From: Calditrichota bacterium
Lineage (GTDB): Bacteria > Zhuqueibacterota > Zhuqueibacteria > Zhuqueibacterales > Geothermadaptataceae
Reading direction: 5' to 3'
Assembly (NCBI GenBank): GCA_008501765.1
Contig: QQUE01000020.1
Location: 1-64,000, forward strand
DNA length: 64,000 bases
The translations under genes and the position numbers were made by a program. The notes under the pieces are model-generated. The model was not told where the DNA came from. It saw only the letters and a program-made list of their open reading frames with translations, and did not search any database. Below, piece by piece: positions 2,424-9,835 of the stretch; position 1 is the first letter of the stretch, and each line of letters opens with the position of its first letter.

Positions 2424-3410
2424 TCACAAACGGTCCATTGGGCTGCGTATGCCTCGGCCACCTCTTTGCATCACATGGGTATATATCATTGTTGTTTCCA
2501 CACTCTTATGTCCAAGCAATTCTTGAATTGTTCGAATATCGTAACCATCTTCCAAAAGGTGGGTCGCGAAAGAATGGCGCAGAGCATGGCAGGTTACCCG
2601 TTTTGTAATCCCTGATTCCCGGACAGCTTTTTTAAGTGCACGCTGCAGCGCCCAATCGCCCTGGTGGTGGCGCCTTTTTATACCGGTTTCAGGATCGGTC
2701 GAGATATTGGGAGCAGGAAACAACCATTGCCAGCGCCATTCGTATTCTGCATTTTTATATTTACGCTGCAAGGCATTGGGCAATGCTACAGAACCAAAAC
2801 CTGCACTAAGGTCGCTGTCATGGAGGTTTTTTACTTTTTCAATATGTTCATGCAGTGGAAGAATCAGATTGCCGGGTAATACGGTAAATCGGGCGCTTTT
2901 TCCTTTTGCATCATGAATTTGCAGTTGCTTATAACCAAAATCCACATCCTTTATACGCAATTGCAAGCATTCATTTAGCCTCAATCCTGCCCCATAAAGC
3001 AAACTGGCCATAAGCCATTTTGCACTCCGCAACTGCTGCAAAATCAATTTCACCTCGTCAACAGTCAATACAATGGGCAAACGCTTTGGCTTTTTTGCCC
3101 ATATGATATTTTGTATTTCCCCGATTTCTTTTTTCAATATATGTTTATATAAAAATACAATAGCGCATAAGGCCTGGTTCTGAGTTGAAGCAGCTACTTT
3201 TTCTTTTGTTGCAAGATGGGATAGAAAAAGATTAATTTCCATCTCACCCATGTCATTCGGGTGTTTTTTATGATGAAAAAGTACATAGCGTCTGACCCAA
3301 TGGCCATAGACATCAATGGTACGCTTGGAATAGTGCATCGTCCTGAGCGTACCCGTGAGCCGTTCGAGTAATTTCGGTGGTTGGGAATTGATACTTGTGA
3401 AATCAGGCAT
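2424..3410 (-). CDS. intI: integron integrase IntI
   Basis: This tyrosine recombinase of 328 residues matches the usual IntI length of 320-340. Catalytic residues visible are R144 (GLRLNE), H275 and R278 (CHALRHS), H301 (LLGHK) and nucleophile Y310 (MIYTH). The diagnostic IntI-only insert is present at about residues 196-232 ([11 protein letters not shown] through [10 protein letters not shown]), followed by RRHHQ. This separates it from XerC/D and phage integrases. The ATG at 3410 was chosen because the protein then begins just before PPKLLERL, as in other IntI proteins. An upstream ATG at 3515 would add 35 residues. It recombines attC with attI to capture cassettes. It points toward the cassettes, the opposite of class 1 integrons. 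Confidence 0.93.
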
Positions 3411-3544
3411 AACATTACCCCGTCCTGCATCCTGTTTTCGCACCCCTGCAAAACAATTCTTCCCAGGGTGATTCGAATTGTAAATAATTGTAGACATAAT
3501 ATTTATCAAATGCAAAATAAAATGTTCGCGCCATTGTGTAAATA

Positions 3545-3707
3545 ACGTGAGTTCGATGTAAGCTGTAACATTCTTTACCAGGCATAATTATAATAGAGCG
3601 AAGGCGTCTCGCCGAGCGTTTCGTGGGTTATCCTCGGCGGGACGCCTTCGGACAATATCCTATAATTAATTCGTTTTGTCCCAATTCTTCTTCTATCGAA
3701 CTCACGT
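3545..3707 (+). mobile_element. 163-bp MITE, copy 1
   Basis: The element begins ACGTGAGTTCGA and ends with its exact complement TCGAACTCACGT. It is flanked on both sides by TAAATA (3539-3544 and 3708-3713), a target-site duplication. Inside is a long hairpin whose arms start GAAGGCGTC and end GACGCCTTC (about 3600-3650). It has no coding capacity, so it would be moved in trans by a transposase that is not in the window. A nearly identical inverted copy lies at 9534-9696. Confidence 0.85.
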
Positions 3708-3909
3708 TAAATAACAAAATGTGAATTGGCCATCGCTTGCATTTATTCCTTGCAGGCCACCAAACCGGGTAGATCCTTTGGCGACCACGCGTGTCTTTAA
3801 TTTTTAAAAACCCGGCTCTGAAATATATTTCCAAATCCCGTTGTTTAAATCTCAATGTGAATCCTGTTCACTATCAGTATGCTGCTGCAGGCACAATAGG
3901 GAGTTGAGA

Positions 3910-5209: not shown

Positions 5210-5474
5210 GGATCAATTCAAGGAATAAGTTGAGGTTTCAATGTGTCGTGCTTCTTTAAACCCGCTGTGTAAATTTCGCCCTACTTTTAACAGCGCGCTT
5301 AGGTTCTTTCATCAAATCAGAGCATCCCGAGTAGCCCCGATGTTTTTCCGGGGCATATCGAGGGGGTGGGCATTAGAATTAAAATGAATGTCAGTGGAAT
5401 TTAAACTGAATTTAAAATCGAGAAGAGTTGGATTTTCGAAAAAAATTCATGCGCGTAAAATTGTAAGCACCCCT

Positions 5475-5817
5475 CGATACATTTCGCTTAAAAAGCAAGC
5501 GAAACACTCGGGATGCGGTGTTACGATACATTTCGCTTAAAAAGCAAGCGAAACACTCGGGATGCCGCGGTGCGATACTTTTCGCTTAAAAAGCAAGCGA
5601 AACACTCGGGATGCCGCGGTGCGATACTTTTCGCTTAACAAGCAAGCGAAACACTTGGGATGCTGCGGTGCGATACTTTTCGCTTAAAAAGCAAGCGAAA
5701 CACTCGGGATGCTGCGGTGTGATACTTTTCGCTTAAAAAGCGAGCGAAACACTCGGGATGCCGCGGTGCGATACATTTCGCTTAAAAAGCAAGCGAAACA
5801 CTCGGGATGTTTTGGTG
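5475..5817. repeat. satellite block A, seven 49-bp units
   Basis: Seven consecutive units begin with (C/T)GATAC and end with CGGTG or, for the last, TTTTGGTGAG. Unit 4 has AACAAGC in the loop and ACTTGGGATG, a variant that recurs as unit 4 of block B. This shows that whole blocks were duplicated rather than single units. Confidence 0.9.
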
Positions 5818-6071
5818 AGTTTTGGAATCAAACACAATTTGACATTTTCGGAAACGTTCGATCGAGTATCAAATAAAAAACGGAGATGCTTCGAGTAATC
5901 TTCAGGTCTACCTAAATCAGAGCATCCCGAGTAGCCCCGATGTTTTCCGGGGCATATCGATGGGGCGGACATTAGAATTAAAATGAATGTCAGTGGAATT
6001 TAGACTAAATATAAAATTGAGAAGAGTTGGATTTCCGATAAAAATATGAGTGCAAAACTGTAAGCACCCCT

Positions 6072-6416
6072 CGATACTTTTCGCTTAAAAATCAAGCGAA
6101 ACACTCGGGATGCCGCGGTGCGATACTTTTCGCTAATAAAGCAAGAGAAACACTCGGGATGCCGCGGTGCGATACTTTTCGCTTAAAAATCAAGCGAAAC
6201 ACTCGGGATGCCGCGGTGCGATACTTTTCGCTTAACAAGCAAGCGAAACACTTGGGATGCTGCGGTGCGATACTTTTCGCTTAAAAATCAAGCGAAACAC
6301 TCGGGATGCCGCGGTGCGATACTTTTCGCTTAAAAAGCGAGCGAAACACTCGGGATGCCGCGGTGCGATACTTTTCGCTTAAAAATCAAGCGAAACACTC
6401 GGGATGTTTTGGTGAG
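6072..6416. repeat. satellite block B, seven 49-bp units
   Basis: Seven units correspond in order to those of block A. Units 1, 3, 5 and 7 carry AAAAATC in the loop instead of AAAAAGC, and unit 2 has a disrupted stem (CGCTAATAAAGCAAGAG). Unit 6 carries AGCGAGCG, as unit 6 of block A does. Confidence 0.9.
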
Positions 6417-6670
6417 TTTTGGAATCAAACACAATTTGACATTTTCGGAAACGTTCGATCGAGTATCAAATAAAAAAACGGAGATGCTTCGAGTAATCTT
6501 CAGGTCTACCTAAATCAGAGCATCCCGAGTAGCCCCGATGTTTTCCGGGGCATATCGAGGGGGCGGGCATTAGAATTAAAATGAATGTCAGTGGGATTTA
6601 GACTGAATATAAAATTGAGAAGAGTTGGATTTTCAAAAAAAAAAATGCTTGTAAAACTGTAAGCACCCCT

Positions 6671-6866
6671 CGATACTTTTCGCTTAAAAAGCAAGCGAAA
6701 CACTCGGGATGCTGCGGTGTGATACGTTTCGCTTAAAAAGCAAGCGAAACACTCGGGATGCTGCGGTGCGATACTTTTCGCTTAAAAAGCGAGCGAAACA
6801 CTCGGGATGCCGCGGTGCGATACTTTTCGCTTAAAAATCAAGCGAAACACTCGGGATGCCGCAGTG
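6671..6866. repeat. satellite block C, four 49-bp units
   Basis: Four units follow the third copy of the upstream segment. The last unit ends in GCAGTGCTTTTAGG and runs directly into the unique sequence upstream of the gene at 7005, which marks the right edge of the array. Confidence 0.9.
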
Positions 6867-7004
6867 CTTTTAGGAACCTTGGTAAATTTAGTTTTCAGAG
6901 GTACTGTGTGCGCATATCCATTGAAATTGTACAGCGAAATTCATATCGGTGTTTAGACACCGGCAAAATCTATAAAAGCGAGACTTGACAACAGAAATGG
7001 AACT

Positions 7005-8621
7005 ATGAAAAAGCCGATAAAAATCTACCAATATTCAAAATTAAAAGACCGTAAACCGGCAGCAGCACTGGTCAAAAATCTGGATTTAGTGCTCGTGCGT
7101 TACGATGACAAAGTTTCCGTGCTCTACGGCCGCTGCCTGCACCGTGGCGCTTTGATGGCCGATGGCCATGTCAATGGCGACAATCTTATCTGCGGTTTGC
7201 ACGGTTGGGATTACCGCTACGACACCGGGATTTCCGAATACGATAATCACGAAATCCTGCACAAATTTCAGTCAAAAATTGAAGACGGCGGCATATGGGT
7301 TGACGAGACGGAAATTGATTCTTATCTGGAACAATACCCGCAGCCTTTCAAACGGGATGAATATTTGGGGGCATTTGCCGACACCCATCCTGAAAATACG
7401 GAACCGTTCACAAATTTTATTCGCGATTTGGCGCGCAACGGACTGAAAAATTACGGCCACCACGGCCCTTCAGAATCGATGGGCGTGGACCGCAACACGC
7501 TGCCGAAATGGGAAAACATCCAGTTCCTTCCTGCCCAATTAGCAAAGCGCCCCTTACTGGACGATGAAGCTGTCGCCACAAAAGTAACGATCGGGCCAAA
7601 AGCCAGAAAGCCGTTGCAGTTGGAAATGCCGGTTTTTGTGTCGGATATGAGTTTTGGCGCCTTATCGCGGGAAGCGAAAATTGCCCTGGCCAAAGGCGCT
7701 GAATTAGCCGGCACCGGAATTTGCAGCGGCGAGGGCGGCATGTTGCCGGAGGAACAAGCGGCAAACTCGCGTTATTTTTATGAATTGGCCTCGGCCAAAT
7801 TTGGCTTTTCGTGGGATAAAGTGCAAAAAGCACAGGCTTTTCATTTTAAAGGCGGACAGGGAGCAAAAACCGGTACCGGTGGTCATTTGCCGGGCCATAA
7901 AGTCACCCGGGAAATTGCCGAAGTGCGTGGAATTAAAGCAGGTGAAACAGCCATTTCTCCCGCTGCTTTTCCTGATTTGCGAACGGCTGAGGATTTCAAA
8001 AAATTTGCTGACAAAGTACGGGACAAAACGGGTGGCATTCCCATCGGTTTCAAAATCGCGGCCAGCCATATTGAGGCAGACATCGCGTTCGCGCTCAAAG
8101 TTGGCGTCGATTATATCATTCTCGACGGTCGCGGTGGCGGCACCGGATCTGCGCCGAGTATTCTACGAAACAACATTAATGTACCGACGATTCCCGCTTT
8201 GGCCCGGGCACGAAAATTTTTGGATAAACAAGGGGCGAAGGACATAACTTTGATTATCACCGGCGGGCTGCGCATTGCCGACGATTTTGCCAAAGCCTTG
8301 ATGCTCGGCGCCGATGCTATCGCAGTGTCCAATTCGGCGTTGCAAGCGATTGGGTGTTTGGGGATGCGGGCGTGTGGTTCCAATAATTGCCCGGTCGGCA
8401 TTGCTACGCAGGCTGAGAATCTGCGTGCGCGTCTGGAAATCGAGAAATCAGCGAAACAGCTATATAATTTTTTTACCGCGACAAACAGCTTGATTAAGGT
8501 GGTGGCGCGCGCGTGTGGTTATGCGGATATTTCACAATTTAATTTACACGATTTAAGCACCATGGATTATGAAATGTTTCGGTTAACGGGAATTTCGTAT
8601 GCCGGGAGCCGGGAAAAATAA
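7005..8621 (+). CDS. Rieske-domain/glutamate-synthase-like FMN oxidoreductase
   Basis: The 538-residue protein fuses two redox modules. Residues 1-90 are a Rieske ferredoxin with C44-x-H46 and C63-x2-H66 binding a [2Fe-2S] cluster. Residues of about 170-530 are the FMN-binding alpha/beta barrel of the glutamate synthase large subunit. It carries the FKGGQGAKTGTGGHLPG loop, DGRGGGTGSAP, and C451-x5-C457-x4-C462, the exact [3Fe-4S] spacing of GltS. The N-terminal amidotransferase domain of true GltB is absent, so it cannot make glutamate from glutamine by itself. It is probably a cytosolic flavoenzyme of unknown substrate fed electrons through the Rieske centre (inference). The downstream gene starts 8 bases after its stop. 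Confidence 0.88.
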   Translation: MKKPIKIYQYSKLKDRKPAAALVKNLDLVLVRYDDKVSVLYGRCLHRGALMADGHVNGDNLICGLHGWDYRYDTGISEYDNHEILHKFQSKIEDGGIWVDETEIDSYLEQYPQPFKRDEYLGAFADTHPENTEPFTNFIRDLARNGLKNYGHHGPSESMGVDRNTLPKWENIQFLPAQLAKRPLLDDEAVATKVTIGPKARKPLQLEMPVFVSDMSFGALSREAKIALAKGAELAGTGICSGEGGMLPEEQAANSRYFYELASAKFGFSWDKVQKAQAFHFKGGQGAKTGTGGHLPGHKVTREIAEVRGIKAGETAISPAAFPDLRTAEDFKKFADKVRDKTGGIPIGFKIAASHIEADIAFALKVGVDYIILDGRGGGTGSAPSILRNNINVPTIPALARARKFLDKQGAKDITLIITGGLRIADDFAKALMLGADAIAVSNSALQAIGCLGMRACGSNNCPVGIATQAENLRARLEIEKSAKQLYNFFTATNSLIKVVARACGYADISQFNLHDLSTMDYEMFRLTGISYAGSREK

Positions 8622-9358: not shown

Positions 9359-9533
9359 ATCAGATTGTTCATTTCTAAATTTTTGAGCAGCGATAAATTT
9401 AGCCTGAATTATTTATAAAGCGCAGTGGATGTGCCTGGCACATTTTTACCAGTTTATGAAAAGATCAGGTTCGTAATTGGCCTCAAACGCAGTCAATCCC
9501 TCTTTCTCCTCGATCAAAATGTCTTGTTAAATA
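9359..9533. other. intergenic spacer
   Basis: The stretch between the channel gene and MITE copy 2 holds no ORF with a ribosome-binding site and no clear terminator. I see nothing else in it. Confidence 0.5.
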
Positions 9534-9696
9534 ACGTGAGTTCGAAATAAGAAGAAATGGGACAAAACGAATTAATTTTAGAATATAGTCCGAAGGCGTC
9601 CCGCCGAGGATAACGCACGAAACGCTCGGCGAGACGCCTTCGCTCTATTATAATTATGCCTGGTAAAGAATGTTACAGCTTACTTCGAACTCACGC
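9534..9696 (-). mobile_element. 163-bp MITE, copy 2 (inverted)
   Basis: This is the reverse complement of the element at 3545-3707, of identical length and with few differences (one TIR base, GCGTGAG instead of ACGTGAG, and scattered internal changes). It is flanked by TAAATA at 9528-9533 and 9697-9702. Because the element is inverted while the flanks read the same on the plus strand, the flanks are target duplications and not part of the element. Confidence 0.85.
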
Positions 9697-9835
9697 TAAA
9701 TATCACTCCTTCCTTCAATTATCCCCAAGATGCATATATTGCAAGTATGAAAATAAATACCTACAATTTGTCGTGGGTTGCAATTTTTCAGGAATTGGCA
9801 GGTGACATCTCATTTTCAGCACAAAGGAGAACAGG

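What the first reader, a model, noticed from the sequence alone, without database searches (positions are those of the whole stretch)
5315..6870. Bacterial higher-order satellite
Blocks of 7, 7 and 4 units of 49 bp sit in a 600-bp repeat that has itself been duplicated; variant units keep their order (unit 4 in blocks A and B). Arrays of nested tandem repeats are rare in bacteria. Each unit has a hairpin TTTCGCTT/AAGCGAAA. The upstream segment carries the complement of the unit's ACTCGGGATGC, so long-range pairing within transcripts is possible.
Basis: seen in the sequence. Interest (0 to 1): 0.72.

Follow-up and report, generated by a model that had tools for sequence, protein, structure and literature searches.

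The report
Tandem array of palindromic mobile element
The "satellite" is a local, thrice-repeated pile-up of one end of a small mobile palindrome that is scattered through this Calditrichota genome, and the full-length version of that element carries not the usual transposase but a tiny GIY-YIG DNA-cutting enzyme, which may be what spreads this widespread class of bacterial palindromes.

Summary
The repeat is real and as described: 7, 7 and 4 units of 49 bp in three ~600-bp blocks that are 91-93% alike. It is not a satellite of its own kind. Each unit is one end (a ~43-bp hairpin module plus linker) of a dispersed inverted-pair palindrome; the "upstream complement" is the other end. Most whole elements (114-117 bp, ~190 bp here) fold as a four-way junction. 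This genome has 79 ends (21 in the array), a congener at least 73, and the phylum is patchy. Linkers differ between arrays, so this is a local tandem expansion, as known for REP/REPIN clusters. The unusual part is the partner: none of 34 Y1/RAYT loci carries these ends, whereas a small GIY-YIG nuclease (UPF0213) lies between them in this genome, a congener, a KSB1 genome and the other closest homologues (both ends in 8 of 9). A decayed nuclease copy in this genome is followed by the same kind of array. Many more distant UPF0213 genes lie between other palindrome families. I read the array as a locally expanded, non-autonomous derivative of a GIY-YIG-encoding palindromic element. Transposition itself is not shown.

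The parts
5314..5913 (+). block A: AG-type end, interior, seven GT-type ends, trailing segment
5914..6511 (+). block B: same order, seven GT-type ends
6512..6867 (+). block C: AG-type end, interior, four GT-type ends
5322..5369 (+).
   Evidence: CM R1 61.5 bits
5922..5968 (+). AG-type end of block B
   Evidence: CM R1 56.4 bits
6520..6566 (+). AG-type end of block C
   Evidence: CM R1 59.1 bits
5475..5817 (-). seven 49-bp units, each a GT-type end (GCATCCCGAGTGTTTCGCTT..AAGCGAAA.GTATCG on the - strand) plus linker
6072..6414 (-). seven 49-bp units (GT-type ends)
6671..6866 (-). four 49-bp units (GT-type ends)
5370..5465 (.). interior between the two ends of the block A element; no coding similarity found
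2424..3425 (-). neighbour, not part of the element: integron integrase gene
   Evidence: TIGR02249 448 bits against cut-off 265

Best explanation
The array is a locally amplified, non-autonomous copy of a small palindromic mobile element. The element has two inverted ends. Each end is a hairpin set in conserved flanks (GCATCCYGAGT-hairpin-RTATCGARGGG). The left (AG-type) and right (GT-type) hairpins differ in sequence. Full-length copies carry a ~99-aa GIY-YIG nuclease (UPF0213 family) between an AG-type and an inverted second end; short copies have the same ends around some 15-110 bp. Shown: ends, folds, dispersal, gene-between-ends architecture in several genomes, local expansion in tandem. 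Inferred: on single-stranded or supercoiled DNA the element forms a four-way junction; the GIY-YIG nuclease recognises and nicks such hairpins or junctions at the element and at targets, and repair or replication copies the element. At this locus, slippage or unequal exchange at the right end duplicated [GT end + 6-bp linker] to seven copies; then the ~600-bp block was duplicated twice and diverged.
For: Dispersal: 79 CM matches in the own genome, 21 of them in this array; at least 73 in congener G068, 12 in G069; 10 of 82 phylum genomes, patchy. Many G068 copies sit in unrelated flanks and start and stop exactly at GCATCC...GGATGC. Structure: hairpin with compensatory changes, 95.8% of cells paired and 40 double changes against 12.7 in shuffles (0/500; AG-type); 19 of 28 whole elements fold as a four-way junction with DNA parameters, including all three window blocks. 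Partner: ends on both sides of the GIY-YIG gene in G000 (L042), G068 (L088/L155) and G045 (L077), and none in 34 Y1_Tnp loci. Counting this genome's own, the nine closest homologues carry these ends, eight on both sides and one downstream only with a truncated upstream copy, and the trait clusters on the protein tree (2 changes, 0/500 shuffles). C11 of the own genome: AG end, decayed GIY-YIG gene (77% over 167 nt), then GT ends in a 78-bp tandem array, the same anatomy as the window. Generality: 57% of 54 UPF0213 loci have flanking inverted repeats above the 95th percentile of control windows in the same contigs, 43% above the 99th. Local expansion: units are 49 bp here, 52 bp in L023 and 78 bp in L024, with locus-specific linkers.
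Against: No movement, excision or nicking was observed. The one orthologous site with both flanks (L027 against G069) holds a decayed copy, not an empty site. No target duplication was recognised. The window array has no nuclease gene and its interior shows no similarity to one. Some UPF0213 clades (Synergistota, Solirubrobacterales) lack flanking palindromes, so the family is not always tied to them. Some genomes with R1 ends (G005, G023, G037, G038) show no nuclease beside them, and G069 has 12 ends but only a UvrC-type GIY-YIG gene. The PRO9 'Deltaproteobacteria' contig is nearly the same as a Calditrichaceae one and may be mis-binned.
Confidence: 0.62

Rival explanations
1. An ordinary REPIN/BIME: the palindromes are moved by a Y1 tyrosine (HUH) transposase, RAYT, acting in trans, and the GIY-YIG gene is a passenger caught between two copies.
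For: Inverted hairpin pairs, intergenic dispersal and tandem clusters match REPINs. The AG-type end reads GTAG at the foot of the hairpin. Four Y1_Tnp genes exist in this genome.
Against: None of 34 Y1_Tnp loci from nine genomes has an R1 end within the ~1.5 kb examined. G069 has 12 ends and no Y1_Tnp, though it also lacks the small GIY-YIG gene. The GT-type end lacks GTAG. A passenger would not be expected to recur with the same end-gene-inverted end order across phyla. In P. fluorescens REPIN clusters sit beside the RAYT genes (PMC3116915); that is not seen here.
Confidence: 0.15
2. A host-selected transcript or DNA device: an array of hairpins that terminates antisense transcripts, stabilises mRNA, or binds a DNA-bending protein, kept because it is useful here.
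For: 15 terminator-like sites on the - strand against 2.5 expected; strong folding. The array lies between genes on the + strand.
Against: The same ends are scattered at unrelated loci and vary in number; units diverge and one stem is damaged (B2); no related species examined shares the array at this place. The terminator-like hits follow from one repeated unit, so they are one observation, not fifteen.
Confidence: 0.1
3. Part of an integron: the units are attC-like recombination sites of the adjacent integron integrase.
For: A good integron integrase gene lies 1.9 kb upstream, followed by three small cassette-like genes.
Against: The unit has no attC core boxes on either strand, and a simple attC scan of the window finds none. 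The same ends occur at many loci, while this is the only full integron integrase in the genome.
Confidence: 0.03
4. Assembly artefact: collapsed or duplicated repeats created the nested array.
For: Repeats of 49 and 600 bp are hard to assemble; reads were not available.
Against: Blocks differ by 7-9% in their interiors and units by scattered changes; similar arrays with other linkers occur on other contigs. Exact copy number is still unproven.
Confidence: 0.05

Closest known systems
REPINs / BIMEs (REP doublets linked to RAYT, TnpA_REP)
   Same: Two inverted hairpin repeats, intergenic, many copies, some tandem clusters that include flanking DNA, and a nuclease gene lying among the repeats (PMC3116915, PMC3733652).
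   Different: No link with RAYT; the partner is a GIY-YIG nuclease; the two ends usually carry different hairpins, so the pair folds as a four-way junction rather than one long hairpin; the GTAG tag is only partly present.
MITEs
   Same: Short non-autonomous copies share inverted ends with a gene-bearing copy.
   Different: The ends are hairpins in themselves; no target duplication recognised; the gene is not a known transposase.
UPF0213 / COG2827 GIY-YIG proteins (PDB 1zg2, 1ywl)
   Same: Same family by sequence (65 and 47 bits); GIY-YIG residues Y7, Y17, G19, R27 and E64 kept.
   Different: In the papers held I found no report of these genes lying between dispersed palindromes.
Integron attC arrays
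   Same: Palindromic units near an integron integrase.
   Different: No core boxes, no cassettes between the units.

Membership tests
REPIN / RAYT system | inverted pair of short palindromes forming a larger folded unit, dispersed between genes | tested here: met
REPIN / RAYT system | GTAG tag at the foot of each hairpin | tested here: inconclusive
   AG-type ends read GTAG with the last G in the stem; GT-type ends read GTGT or similar
REPIN / RAYT system | linked Y1 HUH transposase flanked by the same palindromes | tested here: not met
   0 of 34 Y1_Tnp loci
MITE | ends shared with a gene-bearing, potentially autonomous copy | tested here: met
   L155, L042 and L077 against 114-117 bp copies
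MITE | target-site duplication or empty site | tested here: inconclusive
   the one orthologous site found holds a decayed copy
integron attC | RYYYAAC / GTTRRRY core boxes | tested here: not met
CRISPR or other spacer array | variable spacers between constant repeats | tested here: not met
   the linker CGCGGTG is constant apart from point changes
UPF0213 GIY-YIG (partner gene, not in the window) | GIY-YIG motif with conserved catalytic residues | tested here: met
   PF01541 69 bits, alignment, PDB homologues
UPF0213 GIY-YIG (partner gene, not in the window) | structure-specific DNA cleavage at the palindrome (the proposed activity) | not testable with these tools
   needs purified protein

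The most novel reading that the evidence does not exclude
Small single-domain GIY-YIG nucleases (UPF0213/COG2827) are the mobilising enzymes of a large, so far ownerless class of bacterial dispersed palindromes, many with a CCTGAG...TCGAAGG-like core, seen here in Calditrichota, KSB1 and Chloroflexota with one end family and in Caulobacterales and Actinomycetota with others: a REPIN-like system with an unrelated enzyme that works on hairpin or four-way-junction DNA.
Probability: 0.45. Interest if true: 0.87.

Novelty: new variant of a known kind. Interest (0 to 1): 0.62.

Why it matters
REP-like palindromes are common repeats in bacteria, and only some have a proposed mover (RAYT); [quoted passage not shown] A GIY-YIG nuclease that travels with its palindromes would be a second, independent solution, would give a function to a widespread uncharacterised protein family, and would make the origin of these repeats testable at the bench. 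The array itself shows how such elements seed tandem repeats.

Tried and rejected
Rfam: no match in the window. RAYT as partner: no Y1_Tnp locus has the ends. attC: no core boxes. Synteny of the array in six relatives: flanking genes are rearranged, no array and no empty site there. Empty-site test at L027 and L030: a decayed copy in G069, and no single collinear contig for L030. Origin of the block interior from the nuclease gene: no similarity. Literature for GIY-YIG with palindromes, REPIN or UPF0213, and for the palindrome strings themselves: nothing relevant in the library held; bioRxiv and most subscription journals are not in it.

Full report
Observation. The array is there. TRF gives a 49-bp period over 5475-6406 and 6671-6867. 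Reading the sequence and aligning units gives 7, 7 and 4 units in three blocks starting at 5314, 5914 and 6512. Block interiors are 91-93% identical. A4 and B4 are identical, A6/B6/C3 share a variant, and the collinear order of A against B is the best of all permutations. The trailing segment after A and B is identical but for one base. The divergence between copies argues against a simple assembly duplication.

What the unit is. The reverse strand of each 49-bp unit reads GCATCCCGAGT-GTTTCGCTT..AAGCGAAA-.GTATCG. They are the same kind of element end in opposite orientation, with different hairpins. I call them AG-type and GT-type. Between them lies a second complementary pair (TATCGAGGGG/CCCCTCGATA). 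The pair therefore folds as a closing stem, hairpin 1, inner stem and hairpin 2: a four-way junction (19 of 28 elements). The hairpins vary by compensatory change: on 25 GT-type ends 95.8% of cells pair, with 40 double changes against 12.7 in shuffles and a sharp drop when the partner is slid; AG-type ends show the same.

Dispersal. A covariance model of one end finds 79 matches in the own genome, 21 of them in this array. In the congener G068 most copies examined are 114-117 bp; about ten lie in unrelated flanks with exact ends GCATCC...GGATGC, and a further group shares flanks because it belongs to a larger repeated unit. G068 corresponds to Calditrichaeota bacterium CLD5, so the window is from a Calditrichota genome.

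Array formation. Other arrays of GT-type ends in this genome have other unit lengths and linkers: 52 bp at L023, 78 bp at L024, pairs about 220 bp apart at L021. Linkers are nearly constant within an array and differ between arrays. So arrays arose at their own sites by tandem duplication of an end plus adjacent bases, and here the enlarged block was then duplicated twice. Tandem clusters of REPs and REPINs with flanking DNA are known (PMC3733652, PMC3116915), so this step is not new.

Partner. I looked for the enzyme. Four Y1 (RAYT/IS200-like) genes in this genome and 30 in eight relatives have no such ends within the ~1.5 kb examined. The C3 cluster, in contrast, has a 99-aa GIY-YIG gene between an AG-type and a GT-type end. 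The congener G068 has the clean case: AG-type end, gene, inverted end, nothing else. A KSB1 genome (G045) has the same order. On contig C11 of this genome a decayed copy of the gene (77% over 167 nt, with stops) lies between an AG-type end and a four-fold GT-type array, the same anatomy as the window blocks, whose interior is by now unrecognisable. A search of named genomes with the protein gave 64 loci. The nine closest, counting this genome's own, all have these ends: eight on both sides, though weakly in some Chloroflexota (L162 E-values 8e-4 and 5e-3), and one (L160) downstream only, with the upstream copy truncated. L160's gene also has an internal stop. More distant full-length homologues have none of this end family except one marginal match (L171, E 0.02). 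On the protein tree the trait needs two changes, which no shuffle of 500 matches. The protein belongs to UPF0213 (PDB 1zg2, 1ywl) with its catalytic residues kept.

Generality. For 54 homologues I compared inverted repeats between the 350 bp either side of the gene with control windows in the same contigs: median score 28 against 20; 57% above the control 95th percentile and 43% above the 99th. The sequences are other palindromes, for example CATCCTGAGGAGCC..GTCTCGAAGGATG-like in Caulobacterales and GGTCGAGGAGC..CTCGAGACC-like in Actinomycetota. Other small GIY-YIG genes in this genome and relatives lie between TGTCATTCCCG..CGGGAATCC-like or CCCTTCGACTCCGCTCAGGG palindromes, while UvrC-type GIY-YIG genes do not (in that script genes on the minus strand were read in the wrong frame, so gene limits there are approximate). 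Y1 genes in the same script also often had their own, different inverted repeats, as expected of RAYTs. UPF0213 clades from Synergistota and Solirubrobacterales lack such flanks.

Mechanism. Shown: ends, folds, dispersal, gene-between-ends in several phylum-level groups, absence of RAYT linkage, local tandem expansion. Inferred: that the nuclease acts on the hairpins or the four-way junction, that it moves the element, and that this array descends from a gene-bearing copy. I found no empty site: the one comparable locus in a congener holds a decayed copy.

Surroundings. The array lies between a polyketide-cyclase-like gene and a Rieske/glutamate-synthase-domain gene, downstream of an integron integrase (TIGR02249). 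It has no attC features, so I take the integron as a neighbour.

Verdict. Observation confirmed; the satellite reading is replaced by an expanded palindromic mobile element. The array as such is a known kind of thing; the GIY-YIG partnership is the unusual part, and I found no report of it in the papers I could search.

Noticed in passing
window 3540-3716 and 9525-9702: Two inverted copies of a ~170-bp palindromic MITE-like repeat (ends AACGTGAGTTCGA) bracket the region with the array; at least 40 copies at 94-98% identity in this genome, and G068 contig C753 has six copies at mostly 176-bp spacing.
   Followed up: partly
window 2424-3425: Integron integrase 1.9 kb upstream of the array, with three cassette-like genes (DUF1801, VOC/3-dmu-9, polyketide-cyclase-like) but no attC found by a simple scan.
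   Followed up: partly
L043, L044, L045 (own genome); L079, L082, L089, L095, L103 (relatives): Other small GIY-YIG genes lie between inverted copies of different dispersed palindromes, such as TGTCATTCCCG..CGGGAATCC and CCCTTCGACTCCGCTCAGGG.
   Followed up: partly
L164 (Anaerolineae bacterium CG2_30_64_16): Matches to the element ends repeat with an 815-bp period around the GIY-YIG gene, suggesting that the whole gene-bearing element is tandemly repeated.
   Followed up: no
L031 3245-3400: A different palindrome (CTACGGTCCTGAGCGACAGTCGAAG) appears to be inserted beside the left hairpin of one copy of this element.
   Followed up: no
window 5475-6866, - strand: Most units also offer a terminator-like hairpin on the - strand (CGAGTGTTTCGCTTG then CTTTTT): 15 sites against 2.5 expected.
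   Followed up: no
L143, L145, L146, L148-L150, L152-L154 (G068): Nine of the fetched copies share flanks beyond the element, so in that genome the palindrome is also carried inside a larger repeated unit.
   Followed up: no
window 7005-8621: One gene joins an N-terminal Rieske domain to a glutamate-synthase central domain.
   Followed up: no
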